DNA from: Thermoflexus sp.
GTDB lineage: Bacteria; Chloroflexota; Anaerolineae; Aggregatilineales; Aggregatilineaceae
Reading direction: 5' to 3'
NCBI GenBank assembly: GCA_020724465.1
Contig: DYGX01000003.1
Location: forward strand, 151,473 to 215,472
Length of the DNA: 64,000 nt
In this document: positions 2,575 to 21,094 of the stretch, piece by piece
Layout of the letters: every line of letters begins with the position of its first letter
Numbering within the stretch: the stretch's first letter is position 1
The notes under the pieces: model-generated
What the model was told of the DNA's origin: nothing
Seen by the model: the letters and a program-made list of their open reading frames with translations, nothing else
Databases searched by the model: none
Program-made: the position numbers and the translations under genes

Positions 2575-3585
2575 TTGTACGTCTCGTCCAGCCGGATCGA
2601 ACAACTCACCCTCGAGAGCGCCGTCCTGCGCGACAATCCCCTGGGTGATCCATACATTCGAACGGTGACGGTCTATCTGCCGCCCGGCCACGACGACCTG
2701 CCGGTCCGCGGCTACCCGACGATCTATCTGCTCAGCAGCCACGGCAGCACCGGCCCCAGCATGATGAACTGGCGGCCCTGGGATGTTGACATCCGCCAGC
2801 AGATCGACGCGCTGATCGCCTCGGGCGCCATGCCACCCGCCATCGTCGTGATGCCGGACCTGTGGACTCGCTTCGGCAGCTCGCAGTTCGTCAACTCGGC
2901 GGGGATGGGGCGCTACGAGGATTATCTGATCGGGGAAGTCGTCCCGCTGATCGACCGCAACTATCGCACGCTGCCGGATCGCGATCATCGCGGGCTGGCA
3001 GGGCGCAGCAGCGGCGGCTTCGGCGCCATCACGCAGGCGCTGCGCCACCCTGAAGTGTTTGGCGCCTTCGCCTGCCACAGCGGCGACCTCTACTGGGAGT
3101 TCACCTGCCTGCCCGGCATCAGCCGCATGCACCAGAACCTGGCAAAGTTCGGCGGGCTGGACGCCTTTATTCGCGACATCCCGACTATCCGCCCCAAAAC
3201 GGGCGCCTTCTGGGATCTGGTTATGACGGTCTGTTGGTCGGCGGCGTTTGGCAGCAATCCCGGCGCTCCTCACGGCTTCGACCTGCCCATCGACCCGGAA
3301 ACCGGCGCGTTGAATGAAACCGTCTGGGCGCGCTGGCTGGCGTATGACCCGATCCGCCGCGTCGAGCAGCCCGCCGCTCGCGACGCGCTGCGCTCGATGC
3401 GGCTGATCGTCCTCGACGCCGGCCAATACGACGAGTACCAGCTTCAGGTCGGCGCGCGGCTGCTGCACCGCCAGCTGGACGCGCTGGGCATTGACCACGT
3501 CTACGAGGAATACCCGGACGGGCACCGGGACACACACTATCGCTACAATGTCTCGCTGCCCCGTCTGGCCGAGGCGCTCCAATGA
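2575..3585 (+). CDS. Esterase, alpha/beta hydrolase (EstD/FrmB-like)
   Basis: The protein is 336 residues. The TTG start at 2575 is chosen because a strong AGGAGGAGG site lies just upstream and the promoter excludes earlier starts. The nucleophile elbow is GRSSGG (Ser at about residue 145) after a beta strand, and a C-terminal DGHRDTHYRY segment would supply the His. A long N-terminal strand pattern (RTVTVYLPPG, YPTIYLLSSHG) matches the putative-esterase family (PF00756). Substrate is unknown. It is the first gene of a three-gene operon: its stop overlaps the next start as ATGA, so it is translationally coupled to envelope proteins. Confidence 0.8.
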   Translation: MYVSSSRIEQLTLESAVLRDNPLGDPYIRTVTVYLPPGHDDLPVRGYPTIYLLSSHGSTGPSMMNWRPWDVDIRQQIDALIASGAMPPAIVVMPDLWTRFGSSQFVNSAGMGRYEDYLIGEVVPLIDRNYRTLPDRDHRGLAGRSSGGFGAITQALRHPEVFGAFACHSGDLYWEFTCLPGISRMHQNLAKFGGLDAFIRDIPTIRPKTGAFWDLVMTVCWSAAFGSNPGAPHGFDLPIDPETGALNETVWARWLAYDPIRRVEQPAARDALRSMRLIVLDAGQYDEYQLQVGARLLHRQLDALGIDHVYEEYPDGHRDTHYRYNVSLPRLAEALQ

Positions 3586-5159
3586 GTCGGGGTTCTTTCC
3601 GCGCGCACCAGGCGGCTCCGCTGCTGGTCGCGCTCTTGATGGCGCTGGCAGCGCTGGCCTGCACCCAGGGCAAAGGCGAGGTCATTACCGTCACCGCCAC
3701 GCCGCTCTTTGATGAAGAGGGCCTGGTCATCATCCCGCCTTCGATGACTCCGACCGGCCCCACTCAGACACCGATCCTGCCCACGCCCAACCCGCCGCGC
3801 ACCCAGCCGCAAACCGGCAGCCTATACGTTGTGCAGCCCGGCGACACGCTGGGAACCATCGGCGCGCAGTACGGCGTCACGGTCGACGAGATGATCGCGC
3901 TCAACCCGCAGCTTCCAGATCCCAACACGCTCGAAGTCGGGCAGACGATCAACACGCCCGGCGGGAACATCCTGGTCGGTCCGGATTTCAAGCTGATTCC
4001 GGACAGCGAGTTAGTCTACGGCCCCACCGCCAGCGACTTCAGCCTGACCGGCTACGTCAAATACGTGCCCGGCTTCCTGCGTGCCTATTCCGAGCGGGTC
4101 GGCGATGAAGTGATGAGCGGCGTCGAGATCATCCATTTCGTGGCGCGCAACTACAGCGTCAACCCGCGCCTGCTGCTGGCGCTGCTCGAACATCGCGGTG
4201 AGTGGCTGACGAACCCGTACCCGCCGCAGCACAAGATCGATTACCCGATGGGGATGGTGCGCAGCGGCCGCGAGGGCCTCATGCGGCAAATGCTGGACGC
4301 TGCCGACGCGCTCAACGCCGGCTATTACGGCTGGAAGTATCGCGGCGTGACGGCGGTCAGCTTTGATGACGGCGTGCGCGTGCAGTTTGCCCCCACACTG
4401 AACCCCGGCACGGTTGGGGTGCAGCGCATGCTTGCCGAAGCCACCTCGTCCGTCCAGTGGCAGCGCGACGTCGCGCCGACCGGCTTCTTCCAGACGTATC
4501 TGTCGCTCTTTGGCGACCCGTTCGCCCGCGCCTACGAGCCGATCACCCCGCCGGACCTGTCCCAGCCAGAGCTGACGCTACCGTTCGCGCCCGGCGAAGA
4601 ATGGGTCTACACCGGCGGGCCGCATGGCGCTTACAACAGCGGATCGGCCTGGGGTGCCGTAGACTTCGCGCCGCCCAAACCGCCCGAAGAGCTGGTCGCC
4701 ATGCAGGGATCGTGCTACGTCTCGCCCTACTGGGTGACCGCGGTTGCGCCGGGGGTCATCGCGCGCAGCGGCGACGGATACGTTGTGCTCGATCTGGACG
4801 GCGACGGCAACGAGTTCACCGGCTGGACGATCGTCTATCTGCACATCGACGATCACGAGATCATCGCGCCGGGCACGCGCGTGAGCACCGGCGACCGGCT
4901 CGGCCATCCGTCCTGCGAGGGTGGCTTTAGTAGCGGAACCCATCTGCACATTTCGCGGCGCTATAACGGCGAGTGGATCCCGGTATCGTGCGAAGACTGC
5001 ATGCCGGGCGTCACCGTTCCGCCCTATGTGCTGGGCGAGTGGACGCTGCACGGCTATCCGAACCAGGAATATCAGGGCTACATGACGCGCGCCGGCGACG
5101 ACGGCTATCGCCAGGCGGATCAAATGCGTGAGTTTCGCGATAACAAGGTGATCTGGTGA
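3582..5159 (+). CDS. Lipoprotein with LysM and M23-type peptidase domains
   Basis: The protein is 525 residues. An N-terminal signal ends in a lipobox (LAALAC, Cys27). A Thr/Pro linker is followed by a LysM domain (about 78-125, YVVQPGDTL...), a central helical region of unknown fold, and a C-terminal M23-like domain with a PHG...WGAVDF segment and a GTHLHIS motif supplying the HxH metal ligands. LysM binds peptidoglycan glycans, and M23 enzymes cut peptide cross-links or serve as amidase activators. The expected HxGxD first motif is stretched by an insertion, so activity is not certain. It overlaps the esterase stop (ATGA) and the next gene (GTGA). Confidence 0.82.
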   Translation: MSRGSFRAHQAAPLLVALLMALAALACTQGKGEVITVTATPLFDEEGLVIIPPSMTPTGPTQTPILPTPNPPRTQPQTGSLYVVQPGDTLGTIGAQYGVTVDEMIALNPQLPDPNTLEVGQTINTPGGNILVGPDFKLIPDSELVYGPTASDFSLTGYVKYVPGFLRAYSERVGDEVMSGVEIIHFVARNYSVNPRLLLALLEHRGEWLTNPYPPQHKIDYPMGMVRSGREGLMRQMLDAADALNAGYYGWKYRGVTAVSFDDGVRVQFAPTLNPGTVGVQRMLAEATSSVQWQRDVAPTGFFQTYLSLFGDPFARAYEPITPPDLSQPELTLPFAPGEEWVYTGGPHGAYNSGSAWGAVDFAPPKPPEELVAMQGSCYVSPYWVTAVAPGVIARSGDGYVVLDLDGDGNEFTGWTIVYLHIDDHEIIAPGTRVSTGDRLGHPSCEGGFSSGTHLHISRRYNGEWIPVSCEDCMPGVTVPPYVLGEWTLHGYPNQEYQGYMTRAGDDGYRQADQMREFRDNKVIW

Positions 5160-5980
5160 CAACTCGACGGGGATATTCGCACATCTCAGCCTGGCTCGCG
5201 ACCGCTCCGGGGCGGCGCGGCGCCGCGCTGCTCCTGACGCTGGGCCTGCTGCTGGCAGCGGGAATGCTCGCAATCCGCGAAGCGCGCCGCCTGCCGCCCA
5301 GCGCCGAAGCGGCCCAGGCCCCAACGCCCACGCCGTTGCAGCTTGAGTTTCCGCAGCCGACCGCGACGGAGCCTGCCCTCACCGCCACCCCGACCCGCAC
5401 GCCGACGGTCGTCGTCAACAATTTCGTCGAGGCGCGGGCCAACGATACGAACGTCCGAGCCGGGCCGGATATCAACGCCGAGCGCATCGGCCTGATCTAC
5501 CCCGGCACGCAATACCGGGTCCTTGCCCGGCGGTTCGAGTGGTACCAGATCGAGTTTCCCGAGTCACCCACAGGCAGCGCGTGGGTGCACAACAGCGTCG
5601 TCGACCTGACCGGTAACGCGGCCGACATTCCGGAGATCGAGCTGGAGCAGATCCCGACCATCGACCCCACCTTTATCGCGGCGCAGGAAACGGCGCGCTT
5701 CGTGCGCGAAACGCCGGGTGCTCTGGCCACGCTGACCGCCGCCGTCGAGGTCACGCCGACCGGCGTCTTCACCACGTCGCCCGACGAGCTGTTCACGCTG
5801 GATCCCAGCGCCATCCCGCCCACTTTCACCGAGCCGCCCTACACCAACACGCCGATCGTCATCCCGCGCGGCGCGCCCGCCACAACCGGCACCGGGGGAC
5901 TGCCGCCCATCGTGCCCATTCTGGCGCTGGCGGCGCTGGGGCTGATGGGGCTGCTGGTCGGGCTGCTGCGGCGGCTCTAG
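5156..5980 (+). CDS. Membrane-anchored SH3 (SH3b) domain protein
   Basis: The protein is 274 residues with an N-terminal transmembrane segment (about 24-42), a Thr/Pro linker, then an SH3b-like domain (about 93-152; ANDTNVRAGPD, WYQIEF, GSAWVHNSVV). A disordered Thr/Pro-rich stretch and a second C-terminal hydrophobic helix (PIVPILALAALGLMGLLVGLL) ending in Arg residues follow. Bacterial SH3b domains usually bind peptidoglycan. The GTG start overlaps the preceding stop, making this the last gene of the esterase operon. Its TAG stop lies in a CTAG tetranucleotide shared with the opposing gene. Confidence 0.75.
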   Translation: MTTRRGYSHISAWLATAPGRRGAALLLTLGLLLAAGMLAIREARRLPPSAEAAQAPTPTPLQLEFPQPTATEPALTATPTRTPTVVVNNFVEARANDTNVRAGPDINAERIGLIYPGTQYRVLARRFEWYQIEFPESPTGSAWVHNSVVDLTGNAADIPEIELEQIPTIDPTFIAAQETARFVRETPGALATLTAAVEVTPTGVFTTSPDELFTLDPSAIPPTFTEPPYTNTPIVIPRGAPATTGTGGLPPIVPILALAALGLMGLLVGLLRRL

Positions 5981-6900
5981 CCGCGCCGCGCCAGGTCGAT
6001 TGCAGCCAGCGCGACGAGCGTCGCGATCAGGATCGCCCAGGTGGCAGCCGGTCGCACCGGTCGCCCGGCGCTGGCGGGCCGCGCGTTTTGCTCGTCCCGC
6101 AGATGCATGACGCGCAGCATCACCGCGGCTACGAAGCCGCCGAGCACCACCACGCTCAGCCACTGCGGGTCCAGGTAGCCCCGACCCGCCAGTGCGCGCA
6201 GCAGGTCATCGCGCAGCGCCAGCGAGGCGTAGGCAAAGGTGCCATGCGCCGCAAAGCCCGCCCAAAACGACCGGCCGAGGACCGCCGACCAGCTCGCGAC
6301 CACGCCCGCCAGCAGATAGCCAGGCAGCGCCGCCAGCCCGCCGGGCAGCGCCGGCTCAAGCTGCTGCGGGGCGCTCAGCGCCAGCACGCCCCCGCCCAAC
6401 ACGCCCGCCAGCCACGCGCCGCGCCGCCAGCCCCACGCCGCCACAAACTCGCGGCGCACCAGGCCCCACAGCAACACGCTCTGCGCCAGCGGGATCAGGA
6501 CGACGGCGAACAGCACCGCCAGCTCGTACGAGGCCGGGCGCAGGTCCAGGCCGAGCAACCGATCCGGCGCGCGCGACAGAATCTGCGGCAGGGGCAGCAA
6601 CCCGGCGACCTGCCGCAGCAGGTGATCGGTCAGGTCCATCGCCCACCACGCCACCGCCCAGATGCCCAGGCCCGCCACCCCGCCGAGAATCAGGTTGGCC
6701 GGATCAGGCGCCGGAGATCGCCGCCGGGCGGCACGCGGCGTCGCGCGCCACGCGAGGGCTGCCGCACCGCCTGTCGCAAGCAGCGCCAACAGGCTGCGCA
6801 GCGTCAGCGCATCCGACCCGGCCAGCGCCGTCTGTGCGGCCAGCAACACCGCCCCGCACACAACCGCCCACCACCCCGCGCCCCATCGCAGCGTGCCCAT
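5977..6900 (-). CDS. Polytopic membrane protein, CPBP-like
   Basis: The protein is about 307 residues with some eight hydrophobic segments. The ATG at 6900 is chosen because GGGGAG precedes it; an in-frame start 14 codons earlier has no such site. The order of a LLWGLVRREF segment and a later FAAHGTFAY segment resembles CPBP/CAAX-protease-like membrane proteins, but the EExxxR motif is not intact, so proteolysis cannot be claimed. It shares the CTAG stop with the gene ending at 5980. Confidence 0.6.
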   Translation of the reverse strand: MGTLRWGAGWWAVVCGAVLLAAQTALAGSDALTLRSLLALLATGGAAALAWRATPRAARRRSPAPDPANLILGGVAGLGIWAVAWWAMDLTDHLLRQVAGLLPLPQILSRAPDRLLGLDLRPASYELAVLFAVVLIPLAQSVLLWGLVRREFVAAWGWRRGAWLAGVLGGGVLALSAPQQLEPALPGGLAALPGYLLAGVVASWSAVLGRSFWAGFAAHGTFAYASLALRDDLLRALAGRGYLDPQWLSVVVLGGFVAAVMLRVMHLRDEQNARPASAGRPVRPAATWAILIATLVALAAIDLARRG

Positions 6901-7021
6901 GATTTCTCCCCGTATCAGCGTGACAGTCGCCCGGCAACGCACCCATTGTAGGCCGATCGCGCAGCCGGCTCAAATCCGGCAGCGACCCGCGACATTTGGG
7001 CGCTGTCGAATAAGGGATTGG

Positions 7022-7030
7022 TGGTATAAT
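7022..7030 (+). promoter_or_regulatory. Extended -10 promoter of the partner-switching module
   Basis: TGG followed by a perfect TATAAT (7025-7030) forms an extended -10 about 30 nt before the first ATG. The -35 region is weak. Confidence 0.65.
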
Positions 7031-7059
7031 GCTGTGCATGCTGTGAAAGGAGCGAAAAC

Positions 7060-7398
7060 ATGGCGATGGAAATCATCTCGTCCCAAATGAAGCGGGTGCA
7101 GTTGTTCGAGGTCGTCGGGCGTGTCGACAGCACCAACGCTTCGGAACTGGGAGCAGCGATGGATCAGGCGGCAGACGAGGGCCGCAATTATATTGTGTTG
7201 GACCTGGGGGGTGTTGAGTACATGAGCAGCGCCGGCCTGCGCGAGATGGTGCGCGTGCTCAAGCGTGTGAAGCGGTCCGGGGGGGATCTGCGTATCGCGA
7301 ATCCGTCGGAGCGGGTGCGCGAGGTGCTGGAGCTGGCGGGCCTCGATTCCATCTTCGAGATCTATCCCACGCAAGTCGAAGCGGTTGGCAGCTTCTAG
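7060..7398 (+). CDS. STAS anti-anti-sigma factor-like protein
   Basis: The 112-residue protein is a full STAS domain of the SpoIIAA/RsbV type. The conserved loop reads EYMSSAGLREM, with Ser57 at the position phosphorylated in SpoIIAA. In partner switching the unphosphorylated form binds an anti-sigma or other kinase and releases its target. A good ribosome site (AAAGGAGCG) precedes the ATG. It is followed by the kinase-STAS fusion and a SpoIIE-type phosphatase in the same direction, a complete phosphorylation cycle without an adjacent sigma factor. Confidence 0.9.
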   Translation: MAMEIISSQMKRVQLFEVVGRVDSTNASELGAAMDQAADEGRNYIVLDLGGVEYMSSAGLREMVRVLKRVKRSGGDLRIANPSERVREVLELAGLDSIFEIYPTQVEAVGSF

Positions 7399-7446
7399 GC
7401 GCGCCCGCCCACGTGGTACCGGACCGCAGCGTAACCGAGGATACCT

Positions 7447-8253
7447 ATGGGGGAAGTGAACAGCCTGTCCATCGCCGCCCGACTTGAAGAGGTCCGAGAC
7501 GCCTGCGACTTCGTTGTGCGGGCCGCTGAATCGTCCGGGCTCGATGAGCGGGCCGTGTACCACTGCCAGATGGCCGTGGATGAGGCGCTGACGAACATCA
7601 TCGAACACGGCTACGGTTACGAGGGAGCCGACAGCACGATCGAGATCCGGTGCCAGACGGAAAACGACCGCTTCATCATCACCCTGATTGATGATTCGCC
7701 AGCTTTCAACCCGCTCGAACACGAAGCGCCAGACCCCGACGAACCGCTCGACAGCCGCGAGCCGGGCGGCTGGGGAATTTACTTCATTCGCCGCCTGATG
7801 AACGAGGTGTCGTACGAGCGCGAAAATGGCCGCAACCGGCTTACGCTCGTCAAGCATATTGTGCCGGCGGGCGAACTCGAAGCCGGCCAGGGCGGTGAAG
7901 CCGAATTGCCCTTTCCGGTCCGCAAGATCGAAAGCGACGCGGTGGTCATCACACCCAGCGGCCGCCTGGATAGCAACACCAGTCCCAAGCTCGAGCGCGT
8001 GCTCAATCTGATGCTGGAAGAGGGACATATCTGGCTGTTTCTGGATATGACCGAAGTCACCTACATCGCCAGCAGCGGCCTCAAAATCCTGGTGTCCGCC
8101 TGGCGGCGCGCGCAGGATCAAAAAGGGGATGTCTTGCTCAGCGGCCTGCAGCCCCGGATCGTGGAGATCTTCGAGATGGTGGGCTTCGATATGCTGTTCA
8201 AAATCTTCCCCACGCTTGAAGCGGCCCTGGCGGCCCGATCCAAGACCGGCTGA
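7447..8253 (+). CDS. RsbW-like HATPase kinase fused to a STAS domain
   Basis: The protein is 268 residues. Residues 1-140 form an anti-sigma-type GHKL kinase: N box DEALTNIIEHGY (45-56), G1-like DDSPAFNP (82-89), G2-like PGGWGIYFIRRLM (106-118). Residues about 155-265 form a STAS domain with loop YIASSGLK, Ser209 at the phosphoacceptor position. RsbW-type kinases phosphorylate STAS partners; here kinase and a potential substrate are one chain. It lies 48 nt after the stand-alone STAS gene and 41 nt before the phosphatase gene, so it is very likely co-transcribed. Whether the fused STAS is its own substrate or a lock on the kinase is inference. Confidence 0.9.
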   Translation: MGEVNSLSIAARLEEVRDACDFVVRAAESSGLDERAVYHCQMAVDEALTNIIEHGYGYEGADSTIEIRCQTENDRFIITLIDDSPAFNPLEHEAPDPDEPLDSREPGGWGIYFIRRLMNEVSYERENGRNRLTLVKHIVPAGELEAGQGGEAELPFPVRKIESDAVVITPSGRLDSNTSPKLERVLNLMLEEGHIWLFLDMTEVTYIASSGLKILVSAWRRAQDQKGDVLLSGLQPRIVEIFEMVGFDMLFKIFPTLEAALAARSKTG

Positions 8254-8294
8254 CCCGCTTCGCCGCTCATAGCGCAGCGAGGTAAATCACCACG

Positions 8295-11200
8295 GTGGAC
8301 ACCACACTGATCCTGGTAATGGTGGTTGGTGCCACGCTGGCCGTGTGCGGTCTCGCCCTCGGCCTGGTAACCGGCTACTGGCGCGGTCGCCAGCGCGGGC
8401 TGAGTCTGGCGGCGCAGGCGCGCCCCAGCCCCGAGTTGGACGTCCTGGCCGGGGTTGGCAACGCGATCTTGAGCGTGCAGCTCAAGGTCGATGCGCTGTG
8501 CGAGGTGGTCTATCAGCAAGCGACGCGCATCGTCGATACGCGCAATTTTCAGATCGGCCTGTTCGAGGACAACGACTACGCCATCAAAGTCTGGCTCAAG
8601 GATGCCGAGCGCCTGCCCCCGCAGACCTTCAAGGGCGCGGCCAACGAAGGCGTGATCGGCTGGGTGCGCCGCACCGGCAACAGCCTGCTGGTCCGCGATT
8701 TCGAAAAAGAGTGGGACTCGCTGCCCGCCCGCCCAAGCCACTACACGGCCAAGCCATCCCGCGCGGCGATCTTCGCGCCGTTGATGTCTGGCGGGACGGT
8801 GCTGGGCGTGATCGCGGTCCAGAGCGACCAGCCAGATAGCTTCACAGACGAAGACCTGCGGCTGCTCACCCTGCTGGCCAACCAGGCCTCGGGCGCCATC
8901 CGCAACGCGCAGACCTTCGAGGCCACGCAGGAGCGCGCGCGCCAGCTTCGTCTGATCAACGATGTCACGCGGCAGATCACCGCCATCCAACCGCTGCCCG
9001 ATCTCTTCCGCCAGATCGTCACACTGATCCACGATGCCTTTGGCTACTACGCCGTCAGCATCTTCATCGTGGACGACAAAACCGGCCGCGTCGAGTTGCG
9101 CGCCAGCAGCCACGAGACGTTTGAGCAGGCCCAGTTGGTGCTGGAGCCGGGCCAGGGCCTCGTCGGCTGGACGGCCCGCCACGCCGAAACCGCACTGGTC
9201 CCCAACGTGGCCGAAGACCCGCGCTTTTTGCCCCACGCCGTGCTGGACGCGACGCGCTCGGAGATCTGCGTCCCGCTGGCAGTGCAGCAGCGCGTCCTGG
9301 GCGTGCTGGACGTGCAAAGCAACCGGCAGGATGCGTTCGGGTCGGACGACGTTTTTCTGCTCGAAACACTGGCCGGGCAGCTCGCCATCGCCATTCAGGA
9401 AGCGCAAACCTACGACGCCGAACGCCGCCAGACCGAGCGCATCAACGCCATGACAGATGTCGCGCGGGCGCTGGTGTCGATCCTCAACATCGACGACCTG
9501 CTCGACGAAGTGGTGGACCTGGTGACCGATCACCTCGGCTACGACCGCGTTCACCTCTTTCTGCGCGTGGGCGACCGGCTGGTTTTCCGCAGCGGGAGCG
9601 GCGTGCACAGCGGGCGTTGGGCGCTGGAGCGGCTCTCGTTCGGTATCAACAGCAACGGGGTGATCGCCTGGGTAGCGCGAGAAGGCCAACCACAAGTCAG
9701 CGGGGATGTCAGCGGCAACGAGTGGTACCTGGTCGGGCCGGACGTAGCGGATACGCGCAGCGAGATGACCGTCCCGATCCGCATCGGCTCGCACGTGCTG
9801 GGTGTGTTCGACATTCAAAGCACCGAGCCGGACGCCTTCACCGACGACGACGTCGCGCTGCTCCAGGCGCTGGCCGATACGGTCGCGATCGCGCTGCGCA
9901 ACGCCAGCCTGTTTGCCAACGAGTCGCGCCGCCGGATGCTGTCCGAGACGCTGCGCGAATTGAGCACCGTGCTCGGCTCGTCGCTCGATCTCAACAGCGT
10001 GCTTGACGGCATCCTGGTCGGGCTGGAGCGCGTGGTCGACTACACCGCCGGCGTCATTCTGCTCTATGACCCAAACACATCGCTCTACCAGATCAGCGCC
10101 GCGCGGGGCGAGCTGGTCGATTCGGACACGGGTCCCTGGGACGACCTGATCCACGCCAGCGAGCTAACCGACGCGCGCCTGACCGCCCTGTTGCACCAAC
10201 TGACGCTGGCCGACGAAGCGGAGCACGACGACAACCACGACCAGATTCTGGTCCCGCTCACCGTCGCGGGCGAGCCGACCGGGTATCTGGCACTGGAGCG
10301 CATCGGCCCGGACCGTTTCACGCCTGAAGACAAGGAGATCATCAGCACCTTCGCCAACCAGGCAGCGGTGGCGATCACCAACGCCCAGCTTTACATGGCC
10401 CAGCGGGAAGAGGCCTGGGTTTCTACCGCGCTGCTGCAGGTTGCCGAAGCGACCGCCCGCGCCACCACGCTCGACGAAGTGCTCAGCACCGTTGCGCGCA
10501 TCACGCCCTTGCTGGTGGGCGTCGAATGGAGCGCCGTGCTGCTGGCCGATACGAACGGTTTCCGGGTGGTCGAGGTGGCCGGCATATCGGCAGAGGCCGC
10601 TGCCGCCGTGACCGGCTACGTCGTGACGCCGCTCTCCTGGCCGCTGCTGAGCCAGATCAAGCAGGACGGCGAGCCAATTCTGCTCGACGCCAACACCCCC
10701 AAGCCGGCCGATCTGCCGGTTGACTTTCACATCGGCCAGGGGGTTGTCCTGCCGTTGCTGGCCAAGGGCGAGGTCATGGGGCTGCTGCTCATCGGCCAGC
10801 GCGACGGAAGCGAGCCGATGACGCACCGCAAGATCGAACTGGTCAGCGGCATCGCCAACCAGGCGGCGCTGGCCATCGAAAGCGCGCAGCTTCTGGCCGC
10901 TCAGCAGGAAGAAGCCTGGGTCTCGACCGCGCTGCTGCAAGTCGCCGAAGCGGTCAACACCCAGATCGATCCCGACCAGAGCCTGGAAACCATCGTCCGG
11001 CTGACGCCTCTGCTGGTCGGCGTCGAGCGGTGCGGCATTTTGAAGTGGAACCCGGAGCAGTACTGTTTCCTGGGTGGTCCGTCGTGGGGCCTGACGCCGG
11101 AGAACCGCGAGGTGTTCTACGAGCTGGAGCTGTATGCCGAAGACGAGCCGTTCCTGAGCCGCCTGGCGGAGAGTACGGAGCCGGTCTCGGCCGGTGTCGG

Positions 11201-12200
11201 CGCGGACTGCCCCACCCCCGGCGTGCTGCAGCGCCTGCTTGAAAGCCCGACGCTGCTCGGGCTGCCGCTGGTGGCGCGCGGCCAGCAGGTGGGCGCGATG
11301 CTGGTCGATCATCCGGCGCTGGGCGGGCCAATCGACCGCCGCCGCCTGAACATCCTCAGCGGCATCGCCCATCAGACGGCTCTGGCGTTGGAGAACGCAC
11401 GCCTGCAAGCCGAAGCCACGACCGCCGAGCGCATCGAGCGCGAGCTGGAAGTCGCCCGCGACATCCAGCGTAGCTTCATGCCCGATACCTTTCCCACTGT
11501 TCCCGGCTGGGATGTCTCCGCCTTCTACCGTGCAGCGCGTCTGGTGGGTGGCGACTTCTACGATTTCTTCGAGATCGACGATCACCGCTGGGCCATTGTG
11601 GTGGCCGACGTGGCCGACAAGGGCGTGCCCGCCGCCCTGTTCATGGCCCTGAGCCGCACCCTGCTGCGCGCGGTTGGCTCGAACCGGCACAGCCCTGCGG
11701 AAACCCTCACCCGCGTCAACGAGATTCTCCTGCGCGACACCCGCTCGGACTTGTTCGTCACGGTGTGGTACGGGCTGTGGGACGCGCATACCGGCGTGCT
11801 GCGCTATTCCAGCTCCGGCCACAACCCGCCGCTCCTCATCCACGCGGACGGGACCCCGGAGCTGCTCAACGCGCGGGGGATAGCGCTGGGCGTTGTGCCT
11901 AACATCAAGCTCGAAGAGCACGCCATCACGCTCCAGCCCGGCGATCTGGTGGTGGCATACACCGACGGCGTCACCGAGGCGCTGCGCGCCGACCAGACCG
12001 AGTTCGGTGTGGCCGGCCTGCAATCGGCGCTGCTGAACCTGCGCCACAAGTCGGCAGAGGACATCGCGCGCGGCGTGCTGGAAACACTGGACCACTTCGC
12101 GGCGGGAGAGCCGCAGTTTGACGACATCACGCTGGTGGTGCTCAAACACGTGAGCGGAGCAACACCGCCGCCCGAGCCGCCGCCTGAATTCTCGATCTAG
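8295..12200 (+). CDS. Membrane-anchored multi-GAF SpoIIE/RsbU-type PP2C phosphatase
   Basis: The protein is 1301 residues from a GTG start. An N-terminal transmembrane helix (about 4-26) is followed by six consecutive GAF domains (about 48-203, 209-370, 380-540, 545-695, 705-870, 875-1040), each ending in an NQA..AI.NA-type helix. A C-terminal SpoIIE phosphatase domain (about 1050-1290) follows. Metal-binding motifs are visible: VGGDFYDFF, VVADVADKG, YTDGVTEA and FDDITLVVL. These phosphatases dephosphorylate Ser-phosphorylated STAS proteins, so the two STAS domains just upstream are the obvious substrates. GAF ligands cannot be read from sequence. Six GAFs suggest integration of several small-molecule or redox cues. 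Confidence 0.9.
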   Translation: MDTTLILVMVVGATLAVCGLALGLVTGYWRGRQRGLSLAAQARPSPELDVLAGVGNAILSVQLKVDALCEVVYQQATRIVDTRNFQIGLFEDNDYAIKVWLKDAERLPPQTFKGAANEGVIGWVRRTGNSLLVRDFEKEWDSLPARPSHYTAKPSRAAIFAPLMSGGTVLGVIAVQSDQPDSFTDEDLRLLTLLANQASGAIRNAQTFEATQERARQLRLINDVTRQITAIQPLPDLFRQIVTLIHDAFGYYAVSIFIVDDKTGRVELRASSHETFEQAQLVLEPGQGLVGWTARHAETALVPNVAEDPRFLPHAVLDATRSEICVPLAVQQRVLGVLDVQSNRQDAFGSDDVFLLETLAGQLAIAIQEAQTYDAERRQTERINAMTDVARALVSILNIDDLLDEVVDLVTDHLGYDRVHLFLRVGDRLVFRSGSGVHSGRWALERLSFGINSNGVIAWVAREGQPQVSGDVSGNEWYLVGPDVADTRSEMTVPIRIGSHVLGVFDIQSTEPDAFTDDDVALLQALADTVAIALRNASLFANESRRRMLSETLRELSTVLGSSLDLNSVLDGILVGLERVVDYTAGVILLYDPNTSLYQISAARGELVDSDTGPWDDLIHASELTDARLTALLHQLTLADEAEHDDNHDQILVPLTVAGEPTGYLALERIGPDRFTPEDKEIISTFANQAAVAITNAQLYMAQREEAWVSTALLQVAEATARATTLDEVLSTVARITPLLVGVEWSAVLLADTNGFRVVEVAGISAEAAAAVTGYVVTPLSWPLLSQIKQDGEPILLDANTPKPADLPVDFHIGQGVVLPLLAKGEVMGLLLIGQRDGSEPMTHRKIELVSGIANQAALAIESAQLLAAQQEEAWVSTALLQVAEAVNTQIDPDQSLETIVRLTPLLVGVERCGILKWNPEQYCFLGGPSWGLTPENREVFYELELYAEDEPFLSRLAESTEPVSAGVGADCPTPGVLQRLLESPTLLGLPLVARGQQVGAMLVDHPALGGPIDRRRLNILSGIAHQTALALENARLQAEATTAERIERELEVARDIQRSFMPDTFPTVPGWDVSAFYRAARLVGGDFYDFFEIDDHRWAIVVADVADKGVPAALFMALSRTLLRAVGSNRHSPAETLTRVNEILLRDTRSDLFVTVWYGLWDAHTGVLRYSSSGHNPPLLIHADGTPELLNARGIALGVVPNIKLEEHAITLQPGDLVVAYTDGVTEALRADQTEFGVAGLQSALLNLRHKSAEDIARGVLETLDHFAAGEPQFDDITLVVLKHVSGATPPPEPPPEFSI

Positions 12201-12219
12201 CCTGTTACCGCGCCGCGCC

Positions 12220-12621
12220 GTGAAAACCGCTTTTGTGTCCGCCAGCTATGCCGACCGGGCCGCGCTCGCCCCGGCGCTGGACGCGATCAAAGCAGCATTG
12301 AACGCGGCGGGCTTCCGGCCGCACGTCTTCATCGAGCGCTATGCCTTCGCGCCTGAGGACGCTCGCCGGATGATGGCAACCACGCTGCGCGATCTGCACG
12401 CAGCTGACCTGCTGGTAGCCGAGGTGTCGCACAAAGCGATCGGCGTGGGGATTGAGGTCGGCGCGGCAGCCGCGTGGAGCATTCCGATCGTGGCCGTGCG
12501 CTGCGCCGGGGCCGAGCCGTCTACGACGGTCGGCGGGCTGGCCGCCGCCAGCATCGTCTACCGCGCGCCCGACGATCTGCGCGCAGCACTGGGCGCGGCA
12601 CTCGCCACCCTGTCCCTCTAG
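12220..12621 (+). CDS. Nucleoside 2-deoxyribosyltransferase-like protein
   Basis: The 133-residue protein has the small Rossmann-like fold of the nucleoside 2-deoxyribosyltransferase family: an N-terminal VSASYADR strand, a central ADLLVAEVS segment, and GVGIEVGAA containing the Glu used as nucleophile in the family. These enzymes cleave N-glycosidic bonds of nucleosides or nucleotides; the TIR fold is related. It starts with GTG 19 nt after the phosphatase, without a clear ribosome site, so it may be the fourth gene of that operon. Substrate is unknown. Confidence 0.65.
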   Translation: MKTAFVSASYADRAALAPALDAIKAALNAAGFRPHVFIERYAFAPEDARRMMATTLRDLHAADLLVAEVSHKAIGVGIEVGAAAAWSIPIVAVRCAGAEPSTTVGGLAAASIVYRAPDDLRAALGAALATLSL

Positions 12622-12648
12622 GCCGGGCGCGAGGCAGCCGGCGCCGGC

Positions 12649-14397
12649 CTACGGACCGGCACCCCACCCGTTAAACGGCAGGCATTCGCCGGTGGACGGG
12701 TTGAACTCGGACGGACCGCCGTAGCACGCGGTCGGCAGCGGGTTTCCGTTCTCATCCAGGCGGTTGGCGTTGATATTGTTCAGATCAACTTCCGCCGGGT
12801 TCATGACAGTCACGCAGTGGATCGCGCCGAAGGGGTTGATCGGCGTGCGCCGCTCGGTGAGCGGCGAGTCTGGGTTGAAGAAGTTGTACGTCAGCCGGCT
12901 GACTTCCTCGATCAGCTCCCATGTCCCGATCGACATCACGCCGTTGTTGTCGATGTCCTGCTCGTAGACATACATCACGAAGATGTAATCCCCGCCCGGC
13001 GAGAAGATAATGCCCGCGTCGCCGGTTGTCTCCGGACCCCATCCGTTCTTGTGCGCCACGCGCGTGCCTTCGGGCAGGCCCAGCTCGATCAGGCGGTCGA
13101 TCCGGTTGCCGCTGAGCAACTCGATCATCTGGCGGCACTCGGTCTGCGTGATGTCGTTCGGATACGCTGCCCGCAAGCCGCTGTCGTGGTACGCGCAGTC
13201 GTAGATCTGCATCAGCAGCATCCCCATGTCTTCGGCGGTCGTCTGCGAATAGCGATCCGCGTGGGCGTCGTAATCGGGGTTGGCGGGCTGCTGCGGGCGG
13301 CAGACCGGCACCTCGAAAATCAGGCTGGGATCGCCGACGTTGAGCGGCGCGCTGATGTAGGTGTGCTCGGCGCCCAGATCCTGGGCCGTGCACGACACCT
13401 GGCGCAGTCCATCGCTGAGCTGGGCGTTGGCGGTCGTCCCCTGCCCCGCGATCTGCATCAGGAAGTTCGACGCCGAATTCTCGCTGCACAGGATCGAGGC
13501 CGTCAGCAGGAAGGCGGTGTCCTGATCGACCAGAAGCTGCTGGCGGAACAGATTAACCATGATCGGGATTTTGATCGTGCTGACGGCGCTGTGCGCAACA
13601 TCCGCCAGGATGGACAGCTCCTCGCCGCTCTCCAGGTCCATGACGAAGACGGACGCCAGCGTCTGCGAGCCGTTCCAGGCAAACCCGCGCTGTTCCATCA
13701 ACTGGATGATCGCCTCGCGCAACACGGCCATATCCGCCGCGGGCGCCTCGCGCTCGACAACCGGGAGCTGGACGATGCGCCGCTCCGGCTCCATCTCGAA
13801 CAGGGCCTGCGCCACCAGCTCCATCGCCCGGTCGACATCGAGGGTCATGCCGGGGCGCCCCGACTCGAAGATCAGCTTGTCCGGCTCTTCCCACCGGAAG
13901 CGTGGGCGCTGGGGCTGCGTGTTGTACCCGGCCAGATCGCGCGTCAGAAATTCGCGCAGCAGCCCTTCGTTGTACGTCGCGTTCAGCGGCACCTCGACCG
14001 CAGCCACCGGCCGCCGGCCCAGATAGTTCCAGAACCCCAGCCAGAAATTGCTGGCAGCCGTGTTGCGTGCCCGCGCCTCGGCCAGCATCGCGTCGCTGTT
14101 GGTCCGGAAGCCGACTTCGGCGGGGTCCAGCATGATCAGATGAGAACCGAAGTAAAGCTGCACCGGCTGGAGCATATAGACCTGCTCCCATCGCTCTTGC
14201 GCACGGTTGGGATCCAGGCCGCCGACCTGCAACCCGGCAATGGTCAGGTCGGTCTGAAGCGAGTCGCGGGTGCTGCTATAGCGAGCCAGCTCGATCATCG
14301 CCAGGACGATCGCGGCCAGCAAGAGCAGCGCCGAGAAGATCTCCAGCAGTGGAAGCTGCATGCGGCGGCGGTCTTCGCGCAGATGCCCGTATGCCAT
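12649..14397 (-). CDS. Beta-lactamase-like serine hydrolase with N-terminal PG-binding domain
   Basis: The protein is 582 residues with an N-terminal transmembrane helix (about 18-40). A region like the VanW-associated peptidoglycan-binding domain follows (TIAGLQVGGL..., about 50-200), then a class A beta-lactamase/transpeptidase-like domain (about 235-500). Visible motifs are STIK (SxxK), SENSASN near the SDN position and HKNGWG in place of KTG. A Cys-containing C-terminal tail of about 70 residues follows. It likely acts outside the membrane on peptidoglycan or acyl substrates; antibiotic resistance cannot be assumed. It lies 8 nt downstream of the NUDIX gene and is probably co-transcribed with it. 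Confidence 0.75.
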   Translation of the reverse strand: MAYGHLREDRRRMQLPLLEIFSALLLLAAIVLAMIELARYSSTRDSLQTDLTIAGLQVGGLDPNRAQERWEQVYMLQPVQLYFGSHLIMLDPAEVGFRTNSDAMLAEARARNTAASNFWLGFWNYLGRRPVAAVEVPLNATYNEGLLREFLTRDLAGYNTQPQRPRFRWEEPDKLIFESGRPGMTLDVDRAMELVAQALFEMEPERRIVQLPVVEREAPAADMAVLREAIIQLMEQRGFAWNGSQTLASVFVMDLESGEELSILADVAHSAVSTIKIPIMVNLFRQQLLVDQDTAFLLTASILCSENSASNFLMQIAGQGTTANAQLSDGLRQVSCTAQDLGAEHTYISAPLNVGDPSLIFEVPVCRPQQPANPDYDAHADRYSQTTAEDMGMLLMQIYDCAYHDSGLRAAYPNDITQTECRQMIELLSGNRIDRLIELGLPEGTRVAHKNGWGPETTGDAGIIFSPGGDYIFVMYVYEQDIDNNGVMSIGTWELIEEVSRLTYNFFNPDSPLTERRTPINPFGAIHCVTVMNPAEVDLNNINANRLDENGNPLPTACYGGPSEFNPSTGECLPFNGWGAGP

Positions 14398-14405
14398 ACC
14401 CCTGA

Positions 14406-14972
14406 TTACCCTTCCTGATGCAGGTTATGCCACATGCCCGACTCGTCTCGCTCGCGCCGGAGCGCCGCCAGCGCCAGCTCGTGGAAGGCGACCAGCGGGG
14501 GCAGGGCGTCGAGCGAGGCCCAGCGGTAGCCCAGCAGCTCGTGGCTCAGCCGGATCGCCTGCGGGCCGTCCTCCGGCTCGCACAGATACACCAGGTCCAG
14601 ATGCCCGCGCATCCGCGGCGCGCGCAGCACCAGAATAGGCCGCACAGCCCGCACGCGCAGCCCGGTTTCCTCGTAGATCTCGCGCTCGGCGGTGCGCGCC
14701 GGATCTTCGCCGCGCGCCATCCAGCCGCCGGGCAGACCCCAGGGGCGATGCGGGTGAAACAGATGCTCGACCAGCAGCACGCGCTCGCCGGATGGGTCCA
14801 GCACGATCCCCACCACGCCCACCGAGAAGCGCGGCTGCGCCAGCCGATACACGGCCTGGACCAGATGCCCGGCAGCGGGCACCCGCTGCAGCAACCGCGC
14901 CAGACGGCGGTGCCAGCGGCGCCCCGGTGCGCGAACGGTGGACTGGCTCAGCGGAAAGGTCAAGCGCGGCAC
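14406..14972 (-). CDS. NUDIX hydrolase
   Basis: A complete NUDIX box is present (GGWMARGEDPARTAEREI followed by YEETGL). A basic amphipathic N-terminal helix (RRWHRRLARLLQRV) precedes the VGVVGIVLD strand. Family members hydrolyse nucleoside diphosphate derivatives; the substrate here is unknown. The start is uncertain: the frame is open to a TTG at 15086. I choose GTG at 14972 (188 residues) because AGGAG lies directly upstream and the upstream codons look non-coding, but that spacing is short. Confidence 0.75.
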   Translation of the reverse strand: MPRLTFPLSQSTVRAPGRRWHRRLARLLQRVPAAGHLVQAVYRLAQPRFSVGVVGIVLDPSGERVLLVEHLFHPHRPWGLPGGWMARGEDPARTAEREIYEETGLRVRAVRPILVLRAPRMRGHLDLVYLCEPEDGPQAIRLSHELLGYRWASLDALPPLVAFHELALAALRRERDESGMWHNLHQEG

Positions 14973-15144
14973 ATCTCCTGGCGCCAAAACCAACAAGAGG
15001 CCACTGCGCCGTGTCTTCGCAGCGCCTGGCCCCCCTCTAGGCGAAAACCGGTCGTGAGTGTAACGTGCTCTGCGTCGAAATGCCAAATCGTCGCACCGCG
15101 TGTCAGACGCGCCCGGCGGCTGGCGCGCACCAGATTTATACCTG

Positions 15145-15153
15145 TGCTATACT
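15145..15153 (+). promoter_or_regulatory. Extended -10 promoter of the sensor kinase gene
   Basis: TGC followed by TATACT (15148-15153) lies 46 nt upstream of the ATG at 15200. It places the transcript start downstream of the alternative start at 15065, supporting the shorter protein. Confidence 0.55.
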
Positions 15154-15199
15154 GAAACCGAACTATGCACCCTGCGACAGACTTCGCAGAGGAGCACTC

Positions 15200-18571
<3,372 letters not shown>

Positions 18572-20383
18572 GTGACGGAACGCCGCCGCAACCGGGCTAA
18601 CGAGCTGATTGTCGCGCTGGCGGTCACGGCCACGTTGGCGCTGGCGTTGACCTTCGCCATCATTCTGAGCCTGAGCACCAGCGCCAACGCCGACGACCGC
18701 GCCCAGTCGCCTCAGGCCACCAGCGCGGCCCTGGTTCCAACCGACACGCCGCCCGCCGTGGTGTTCCAGGCCACGCATACCACCGAGCCTTCACCGACCC
18801 GGACGCCCTCAGCCACGCGCACCCAGGCGCCGACGGACACACCCGAACCCACCGCTACGGCGCTGCCGGCCACCCACACGCCAACTGCGACTCCATCGGC
18901 AACGCGCACCGCAGCCGCGCAGCAACCCACCGCCCCATCATCGCCGGTCGAGGTCGCCGCCGCGGCGACGGCCAGCCCGACGCGCACACTCACGCCGACG
19001 CGGACGCCCTCGGCCACGCGCACGCCGCCGCCAACGCGCACGCCGCTGCCGACCCGCACGCCGACGTCGACGGCCACGGTCACGCTCACCCGCACGCCAA
19101 CTGCAACCCGCACCGCGATCCCAACGCGCACACCGCTGCCGACCCGCACGCCAAGCCCAACCCAAACCGCGACAGCGACGCCGACGGCAACCCGCACGCC
19201 GACGCCGACATTCACGCCATTCCCAACGCTGACACCCAGCGTCACGCGGACACCCACCCTGCGGCCGTCCGCCACGCACACGCCATCCGCGACCCACACC
19301 GCGTCACCGGTGCCAACGCGCACGCCGCGCCCGTCCGCGACGCCTGTGCCCACCGCTACACCGAGCGCGACACTGACGCCCACGCCGTTGCCGCCGACCC
19401 GGACACCGACGGTCACGCCTTCGGTCACGCGCACACCGACGCGCACACCGACGCCGCGCCCGTCCGCGACGCCTGTGCCCACCGTCACGCCGAGCGCCAC
19501 GCCCACAGCGACGCTGACGCGCACTCTCACGCCGAGCGCCACGCCAACCTGGACGCGCACACCCACGCCGACGCCATCGCGCACCCCGTCGGTGACGCGC
19601 ACGCCATCGCGCACGCCCACGCCGACGATCACACCGAGCGCGACCGCGACACCCACCCGCACGCCGAGCGCAACGCCAACCAGCACTGCGACGCCCACCC
19701 TGACGCGAACGCCGTCGCGCACGCCCACGCCGAGCCGCATCCCGCCGACCATGACCTTCACCCCCTACCCGTCGCTGACGCCGAGCATCACGCCGTTCGG
19801 CGGCGAGCGGACGCCCAGCCCGGCCCCGTCCGGCTGCGACGTGCCGGCGGGCTGGCAGCAATATGTCATCCAGCGGGGCGACACGCTCTTCGCGCTGGCG
19901 CGGCGCTGGAGGATCACGGTCGAAGCACTGGCGCGCGCGAACTGCATTGACGACCGCAGCAACATCACCGCGGGCCTGATCCTGTACGCGCCGCCCGGCA
20001 GCAATGTGACACCCTTCCCGACCGCGACAGGAGTCGCTGGGTCTGTCGCCACGGGCAACTACACCAGCTTTGACTGCGGCAACCCCGGCGCGACGATCAC
20101 CGATCCGCGCCCCGGCGCCATCCTGCGCGGCACCTTCGCCGTGTATGGCTCCGCCACCCATCCGGACTTTCAGTTCTATCGCCTGCAGGTATCCGGCGCG
20201 GGGACCGGCGACGGCGAGTTCGTGACGCTCAACGTCTATCACGAGCAGGTCAGCGGCGGGCAGTTAGGGACGATCAATACGCTGGCATTCACGCCCGGCG
20301 ACTACTGGATCCGTCTGACCGTCGTGGACAACACGGGCAATTACCCGCCGCAGTGCACGGTCAAGGTGCGCTTCGCGGAGTGA
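18572..20383 (+). CDS. Thr/Pro-rich LysM surface protein
   Basis: The protein is 603 residues. GTG directly follows the kinase stop and is preceded by AGGAGG, so the two genes are coupled. It has an N-terminal transmembrane helix (about 14-32), a roughly 340-residue low-complexity stretch of TRTP/SATP-type units (about 65-405), a LysM domain (about 425-471; [16 protein letters not shown]) and a C-terminal beta-sandwich-like domain with two Cys. LysM points to peptidoglycan binding; the linker would span the envelope. Its regular Arg makes the linker positively charged. Confidence 0.8.
18780..19760 (+). repeat. Low-complexity Thr/Pro/Arg coding repeat
   Basis: About 1 kb built from degenerate units such as acgccgacgcgcacgccg, encoding TPTRTP and SATRTP-like strings. 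A longer near-identical block encoding [14 protein letters not shown] recurs around 19320 and 19440. It is a coding repeat and a likely site of replication slippage and read misassembly. Confidence 0.8.
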
Positions 20384-20407
20384 GTGCCCCACGCGCAGAT
20401 CGAAACC

Positions 20408-20442
20408 GGCCGGGGCCGCGCCGCCAGACAGCCCCGGCCTTT
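20408..20442 (+). terminator. Hairpin terminator after the LysM gene
   Basis: A perfect 9-bp stem (ggccggggc / gccccggcc) with a 14-nt loop is followed by TTT. It separates the LysM gene from ogt. Confidence 0.6.
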
Positions 20443-20460
20443 CACGTTGCAGGAGACCTG

Positions 20461-20940
20461 ATGAACAGCCTGACCGCCTATCTGACCACTCCCATCGGCA
20501 CGCTGGCGATCAGCGGAACGGAAGCCGGCATCCGCGCAATTCGGTTCCTGGACGAGCCGGTCGAGCAGCCTGCCCCGGTCCCGCCGGAGCTGGCCACCTG
20601 CATCCGGCAGCTTGAGGAGTACTTCGCCGGAACGCGCACCACCTTTACCGTCGAGCTGCTGCCTGAGGGAACGCCCTTCGAGCGGCGTGTCTGGGCGCAT
20701 CTGCTCGACATCCCGTTCGGCGAGACGCGCACCTACGCGCAGATCGCCGAAGCCCTGGGCGACCCCAAGACGATCCGCGCCGTGGGCCGCGCCAACGGTC
20801 GCAACCCGATCCCGATCATCATCCCCTGCCACCGCGTGATCGGCAGCGGCGGCGAGCTGGTCGGCTACGGCGGCGGGCTGTGGCGCAAGGAGTGGCTGCT
20901 GGCGCATGAGGGGCGGCCCACGCAGCAGACCCTCTTCTGA
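20461..20940 (+). CDS. ogt: Methylated-DNA--protein-cysteine methyltransferase
   Basis: The protein is 159 residues, the usual length for single-domain Ogt. The active-site motif PCHRVIGSGG contains the acceptor Cys123, and the helix-turn-helix stretch TYAQIAEALG and RAVGRANGRNP are conserved. It removes alkyl groups from O6-alkylguanine by suicide transfer. The ATG is chosen for the AGGAG site seven nt upstream; the frame extends further 5' but overlaps the terminator hairpin. Confidence 0.95.
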   Translation: MNSLTAYLTTPIGTLAISGTEAGIRAIRFLDEPVEQPAPVPPELATCIRQLEEYFAGTRTTFTVELLPEGTPFERRVWAHLLDIPFGETRTYAQIAEALGDPKTIRAVGRANGRNPIPIIIPCHRVIGSGGELVGYGGGLWRKEWLLAHEGRPTQQTLF

Positions 20941-20994
20941 TCGCGGTCCGCTCGCGCCTTCCCGGCTTTTGCCCGCCGCCTGGCTGCCGCCGGG

Positions 20995-21023
20995 TTGGAG
21001 ATCCCCCCGTCTCGCGCTACACT
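20995..21023 (+). promoter_or_regulatory. Promoter of the LCP gene
   Basis: TTGGAG (20995-21000), 17 nt, TACACT (21018-21023). This predicts a leader of about 65 nt before the ATG at 21095. Confidence 0.6.
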
Positions 21024-21094
21024 TGCGCTGCACGCTGCCCGAAATCCGACCCTGGGCAGCGGCACCCTGACCTTGCAAGCGGAGTAGAGGATCG

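What the first reader, a model, noticed from the sequence alone, without database searches (positions are those of the whole stretch)
7060..12621. Partner-switching module with kinase and STAS domain in one chain and no sigma factor
A stand-alone STAS protein, an RsbW-like kinase fused to a second STAS domain, and a membrane phosphatase with six GAF domains lie in one direction with gaps under 50 nt. Classical systems keep kinase and STAS substrate separate so they can switch partners. Here Ser209 of the fused STAS sits beside its own kinase, which suggests cis phosphorylation or a built-in competitor of the free STAS protein. No sigma factor or other target gene is adjacent, so the output is unknown. 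Motifs are seen directly; the mechanism is inference.
Basis: partly seen in the sequence, partly recalled or inferred. Interest (0 to 1): 0.6.

Follow-up and report, generated by a model that had tools for sequence, protein, structure and literature searches.

The report
Stress-type switch kinase fused to STAS
Three neighbouring bacterial genes encode a protein on/off switch of the kind used in stress responses, in which the kinase carries a second copy of the protein it modifies; this linked form is widespread in one bacterial phylum, which makes it a good natural test of how such switches are wired, but it is a variation on a known theme.

Summary
Window 7060-12200 encodes a stand-alone STAS protein (Ser57), an RsbW/SpoIIAB-type kinase fused to a second STAS domain (Ser209), and a membrane-anchored six-GAF SpoIIE phosphatase, on one strand with gaps of 48 and 41 nt. 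The fusion is no oddity: 34 of 41 genomes searched around this one encode it full-length in one frame, and the same STAS / kinase-STAS / GAF-SpoIIE order recurs in a second Chloroflexota lineage that includes Chloroflexus aurantiacus. Relatives show the same switch with the second STAS absent, or as a separate gene in the same place. Catalytic residues are invariant in 73 of 73 fusions and position 209 is always Ser or Thr, so degenerate readings are unlikely. Most likely this is an RsbU/V/W-type partner switch whose kinase carries a tethered second substrate that competes with the free STAS protein. Phosphorylation, competition and output are inferred. No SigB/SigF-type sigma factor was found beside it or in the genome. 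Kinase and STAS in one chain has published precedents (Rv1364c, SipA), but in the papers I could search I found neither this layout nor a function for it. New variant of a known kind; moderate interest.

The parts
7060..7398 (+). stand-alone STAS protein (STAS1, RsbV-like), phosphosite Ser57, conserved C-terminal tail TQVEAVGSF
   Evidence: Pfam STAS 3.3e-22, TIGR00377 3.2e-23; Ser57 in 107 of 107 STAS1 proteins, Asp23 100 of 107, Arg85 104 of 107
7447..7866 (+). RsbW/SpoIIAB-type kinase domain of the fusion (N box E46/N50, D82, G108/G110)
   Evidence: HATPase_c_2 1.4e-29; E46, N50, D82, G108, G110 in 73 of 73 fusions; Foldseek best hits SpoIIAB 1th8_A/1til_E, then RsbV-RsbW complex chains
7867..7917 (+). 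flexible linker between kinase and STAS2
   Evidence: AlphaFold2 pLDDT below 50 at residues 142-152 or 143-152; linker 12-24 aa in the Anaerolineae-type fusions, 3-8 aa in the second lineage, one outlier of 39
7918..8253 (+). fused second STAS domain (STAS2), phosphosite Ser209
   Evidence: Pfam STAS 4.4e-18; position 209 Ser 69, Thr 4, other 0 of 73; one clade with separately encoded STAS2 proteins (support 94/76)
8295..12200 (+). membrane-anchored phosphatase: one N-terminal hydrophobic segment, six GAF domains, SpoIIE/PPM phosphatase
   Evidence: Pfam GAF, 6 stretches, and SpoIIE 5.6e-51; hydrophobic segment and PPM motifs
12220..12621 (+). small ORF 19 nt downstream, nucleoside deoxyribosyltransferase-like, probably not a core part
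   Evidence: Pfam Nuc_deoxyrib_tr 28.4 bits, just under the 28.8 cut-off; found at this place in L058 but not in most relatives

Best explanation
A phosphatase-reset partner switch of the RsbU/RsbV/RsbW type, in which the kinase carries a tethered second STAS substrate. Shown from sequence: the three genes, intact catalytic and phosphoacceptor residues, conserved gene order, and relatives in which STAS2 is absent, separate or fused. Inferred: the kinase dimer phosphorylates free STAS1 (Ser57) and also STAS2 (Ser209) on its own or the partner chain. Unphosphorylated STAS2, at high local concentration, occupies the kinase surface that STAS1 would use, so it sets a threshold and lowers sensitivity to free STAS1 until it is phosphorylated and lets go. 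The membrane GAF-SpoIIE phosphatase, on a small-molecule or redox cue sensed by the GAF domains, removes both phosphates. The free STAS1, or the released kinase, then acts on an unidentified target that is unlikely to be a SigB/SigF-type sigma factor.
For: Domain content and motifs. Gene order STAS1, kinase-STAS2, GAF-SpoIIE kept in the Anaerolineae-type loci (35 of 43 fused loci with enough flank have the SpoIIE gene downstream) and in a second lineage (L196-L201, L203, L204, L229), one member of which, G158, has exactly the 5,258,541 bases of C. aurantiacus J-10-fl. Same order with STAS2 as its own gene in L206, L207 and, without an adjacent SpoIIE, L209. Same order without STAS2 in about ten loci (L216-L220, L223, L226-L228, L230). 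Fused and separate STAS2 form one clade and STAS1 the other. Positions that contact the kinase in the RsbV-RsbW crystal (Asp23, Tyr53, Ser56 and Arg84 of RsbV; PMC7340262) are, as a set, more conserved than random positions in both domains; in STAS2 the Ser/Thr and Asp are kept while the Arg equivalent is relaxed to 55%, as expected if tethering replaces part of the affinity. Rv1364c sets a precedent: its kinase domain phosphorylates the STAS domain of the same protein and its phosphatase domain reverses it (PMC9138534). In SipA the kinase-like and STAS domains of one chain bind each other.
Against: No biochemistry was found for this subfamily. AlphaFold2 does not place STAS2 on its own kinase with confidence (pTM 0.59). 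In the second lineage the linker is only 3-8 residues, which may forbid docking on the own active site and favour the partner chain or another face. In SipA the structural model placed the own and the foreign STAS on opposite faces of the kinase-like domain, and its authors judged competition unlikely. The Arg that RsbW uses to bind RsbV Asp23 is usually Cys or Ser here, so the interface differs in detail.
Confidence: 0.55

Rival explanations
1. STAS2 is an output or scaffold domain, not a competitor: its phosphorylation state controls binding to a downstream effector or to the phosphatase, as a second branch of the switch. The free STAS1 and tethered STAS2 would then have different targets.
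For: STAS2 forms its own subfamily, distinct from STAS1, whether fused or separate; it is encoded as an independent protein in L206, L207 and L209, so tethering is not essential. STAS1 is the more strictly conserved, with a conserved tail, consistent with different partners.
Against: No effector gene is consistently linked. The phosphoserine and the Asp equivalent to RsbV Asp23 are kept, as for a kinase substrate.
Confidence: 0.25
2. The fusion is a nearly neutral joining of two adjacent cognate genes; it ensures equal amounts of kinase and STAS2 but adds no new regulatory logic.
For: The two genes are adjacent and in the same order where they are separate; the kinase and STAS2 trees require several fused/unfused changes.
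Against: Long retention of the fusion across the order (34 of 41 genomes) and in a second lineage with a different linker length.
Confidence: 0.15
3. It is a conventional anti-sigma switch whose target is a housekeeping-type (group 1/2) or ECF sigma factor encoded elsewhere.
For: 16 Sigma70 region-2 hits in the genome. In Chlamydia an Rsb network has been reported to control availability of the primary sigma factor (PMC4552016, abstract).
Against: No sigma factor is linked to the locus; no SigB/SigF-type protein was found; the position equivalent to RsbW Arg23 is usually Cys or Ser (its role in sigma binding is recalled from the SpoIIAB literature, not tested).
Confidence: 0.2

Closest known systems
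RsbU-RsbV-RsbW / SpoIIE-SpoIIAA-SpoIIAB partner switches (Bacillus)
   Same: STAS protein with conserved phosphoserine, GHKL kinase with intact N and G boxes, SpoIIE/PPM phosphatase with a sensor region; folds match SpoIIAB, SpoIIAA and RsbV
   Different: second STAS fused to the kinase; no sigma factor adjacent and no SigB/SigF-type factor found in the genome; RsbW Arg23 equivalent usually Cys or Ser
Rv1364c of Mycobacterium tuberculosis
   Same: kinase domain followed by STAS in one chain; the STAS serine is phosphorylated by that kinase domain and reversed by its phosphatase domain (PMC9138534, PMC10950880)
   Different: Rv1364c also holds a PAS sensor and the phosphatase in the same chain; here the phosphatase is a separate membrane protein and a second, free STAS is encoded first
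SipA of Actinoplanes missouriensis
   Same: RsbW-like domain and STAS in one chain, shown to bind each other (PMC10733313)
   Different: domain order reversed (STAS first); its partner is a sigma factor with its own STAS; its authors knew of no similar domain structure
Own-genome module at contig C44 (L003/L212)
   Same: SpoIIE, kinase and two STAS genes in one cluster
   Different: nothing is fused

Membership tests
RsbU/V/W-type partner switch | stand-alone STAS protein with phosphoacceptor Ser | tested here: met
   STAS 3e-22; Ser57 in 107 of 107 relatives
RsbU/V/W-type partner switch | GHKL serine kinase with catalytic Glu and Mg-binding Asn | tested here: met
   HATPase_c_2 1e-29; E46 and N50 in 73 of 73
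RsbU/V/W-type partner switch | SpoIIE/PPM phosphatase with sensor region, genetically linked | tested here: met
RsbU/V/W-type partner switch | phosphorylation-controlled exchange of kinase partners | not testable with these tools
   needs biochemistry
SigB/SigF anti-sigma module | cognate SigB/F/G-type sigma factor, usually linked | tested here: not met
   none adjacent; all Sigma70_r3 hits over the cut-off lie in frames of 385-615 aa; genome about 99% complete, so a missing gene is not fully excluded
SigB/SigF anti-sigma module | NCBIfam RsbW, SpoIIAB and SpoIIAA equivalog cut-offs | tested here: not met
   kinase 48 bits against 145 (RsbW) and 28 against 135 (SpoIIAB); STAS1 50 against 115 (SpoIIAA)
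Rv1364c-type multidomain switch | sensor, phosphatase, kinase and STAS in a single chain | tested here: not met
   phosphatase is a separate ORF
Rv1364c-type multidomain switch | kinase phosphorylates the STAS of the same protein | not testable with these tools
   needs biochemistry; the residues are present
SipA | STAS N-terminal to the RsbW-like domain, sigma-STAS partner | tested here: not met
   order is kinase then STAS; no sigma factor linked

The most novel reading that the evidence does not exclude
A partner switch in which the kinase contains its own built-in competitor, so that auto-phosphorylation of the tethered STAS sets a threshold for the free STAS protein, and whose output is not a sigma factor; the phylum preserves the states 'no STAS2', 'separate STAS2' and 'fused STAS2' as a natural series.
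Probability: 0.3. Interest if true: 0.6.

Novelty: new variant of a known kind. Interest (0 to 1): 0.38.

Why it matters
Partner switching is usually explained by free exchange of separate proteins. A lineage-wide switch that tethers one STAS to the kinase and keeps another free, with close relatives that lack the tether or the second STAS, allows the role of tethering to be tested by comparison and by simple domain swaps. One carrier, Chloroflexus aurantiacus, is cultured (identified by its exact genome size). It also adds a switch without an evident sigma-factor target.

Tried and rejected
Degenerate kinase or dead phosphosite: rejected, catalytic residues 73 of 73 and position 209 Ser/Thr in all. 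Assembly or frameshift artefact: rejected. Idea that STAS2 is lost only when the phosphatase is lost: suggested, then rejected, because ten loci have STAS1-kinase-GAF-SpoIIE without STAS2. AlphaFold2 on two alignments (26 and 59 sequences) to see whether STAS2 docks on its own kinase: orientation undetermined, and no coordinates are returned to measure distances. Promoter scan: no promoter-like match on the + strand just upstream of STAS1. A solved structure of a kinase-STAS fusion: none by sequence or among the Foldseek matches listed. Several literature searches with many terms returned nothing useful. The rooting of fusion against fission is unresolved; trees have few columns.

Full report
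Observation. The three genes are as described: STAS 7060-7398, kinase-STAS 7447-8253, GAF-SpoIIE 8295-12200, one strand, gaps of 48 and 41 nt. Pfam gives STAS; HATPase_c_2 (9-136) plus STAS (160-260); and six GAF stretches plus SpoIIE. Ser57 and Ser209 sit at the position of SpoIIAA Ser58/RsbV Ser56. The phosphatase has one hydrophobic N-terminal segment and the PPM motifs. The domains of the fusion fold like SpoIIAB, SpoIIAA and RsbV.

How common it is. Of 41 genomes searched around this one, 34 encode a full-length kinase-STAS match in one frame, three have the kinase alone, and four gave no clear ortholog. In 400 genomes drawn across the phylum, 23 gave a single full-length fused match without a stop, and more show the two halves as separate hits in frames of 250-290 aa. 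Of the named hits in the genome collection, nearly all are Anaerolineae or Chloroflexi; the Luteimonas and Planctomycetota relatives are not fused.

Four states of one locus. (A) STAS1, kinase, GAF-SpoIIE, no second STAS: L216-L220, L223, L226-L228, L230. (B) STAS1, kinase, STAS2, GAF-SpoIIE as four genes: L206, L207; L209 has STAS1, kinase and STAS2 without an adjacent SpoIIE, and in L208 only kinase and STAS2 were detected. (C) STAS1, kinase-STAS2 fused, GAF-SpoIIE: the window and its relatives, and a second lineage L196-L201, L203, L204 and L229. G158, the genome of L196, has 5,258,541 bases, exactly the size published for Chloroflexus aurantiacus J-10-fl. (D) STAS1 and kinase, with or without STAS2, but no SpoIIE within about 6 kb. 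In several D loci the beta-lactamase-like, NUDIX and histidine-kinase neighbours appear to recur at the same place; I matched these by position, strand and length and by Pfam only in the window.

Relationship of the STAS domains. In a careful tree of 81 STAS domains, STAS1 is one side of a branch (95/91, starred) and fused plus separate STAS2 together form one side (94/76, not starred). Separate STAS2 proteins nest among fused ones, so the fused state changed more than once; direction is not resolved. The kinase tree likewise mixes fused and unfused kinases.

Are both serines plausible substrates? Kinase E46, N50, D82, G108 and G110 are in 73 of 73 fusions; position 209 is Ser in 69 and Thr in 4. 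Positions that contact RsbW in the RsbV-RsbW crystal structure (PMC7340262) are conserved in STAS1 (Asp 100/107, Tyr 105/107, Ser 107/107, Arg 104/107) and partly in STAS2 (Asp 70/73, Tyr or Phe 71/73, Ser/Thr 73/73, Arg 40/73). I read this as two real substrates, with looser contacts in the tethered one. These counts include close relatives and are not independent events; the SpoIIAB and RsbV letters used to place the positions were written from memory and agree with the residue numbers in the paper.

Geometry. The linker is 12-24 residues in Anaerolineae-type fusions and 3-8 in the second lineage, with one outlier of 39. AlphaFold2 leaves it disordered and does not fix the domain arrangement (pTM 0.55 and 0.59). 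Own-chain docking is therefore neither shown nor excluded, and may differ between lineages.

Output. No sigma factor is adjacent. The genome has 16 Sigma70 region-2 hits; all region-3 hits over the cut-off lie in frames of 385-615 aa, so the factor types that classical switches control were not found. The neighbourhood holds cell-envelope genes (LysM/M23, beta-lactamase-like with a peptidoglycan-binding domain, LytR-CpsA-Psr) and a histidine kinase, which is a hint only.

Known or new. Published precedents put kinase and STAS in one chain: Rv1364c (PAS-phosphatase-kinase-STAS, the STAS serine phosphorylated by the kinase domain of the same protein) and SipA (STAS-RsbW order, the two domains bind each other). 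Neither has this layout. My literature searches covered only the held open-access library and found no study of the Chloroflexota form. It works like an RsbU/V/W switch by its parts; it does not meet the cut-offs of the named RsbW or SpoIIAB families. I file it as a new variant of a known kind.

Noticed in passing
window 12220-12621: Small ORF 19 nt after the phosphatase gene with a sub-cut-off match to nucleoside 2-deoxyribosyltransferase; an ortholog lies at the same place in L058 but not in most relatives.
   Followed up: partly
window 3582-22663: Cell-envelope-themed neighbourhood: LysM/M23 peptidase, SH3_3, beta-lactamase2 with PG_binding_4, NUDIX, long histidine kinase, LysM protein, LytR_cpsA_psr.
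   Followed up: partly
L002/L214 (own contig C13): A single 567-aa ORF that joins a kinase-like ATPase, a GAF domain and a SpoIIE phosphatase, with a STAS gene upstream: another fused partner-switch arrangement in the same genome.
   Followed up: partly
L115 7232-7795, L117 3323-3799, L118 1368-1913: A second, unfused kinase lies between the kinase-STAS fusion and the phosphatase in three related genomes.
   Followed up: partly
L073, L077, L079, L080: An extra STAS1 paralog precedes STAS1 in the operon.
   Followed up: no
L144 (Luteimonas), L149 and L150 (Planctomycetota): Distant relatives of the kinase next to separate STAS and SpoIIE genes, outside Chloroflexota.
   Followed up: partly
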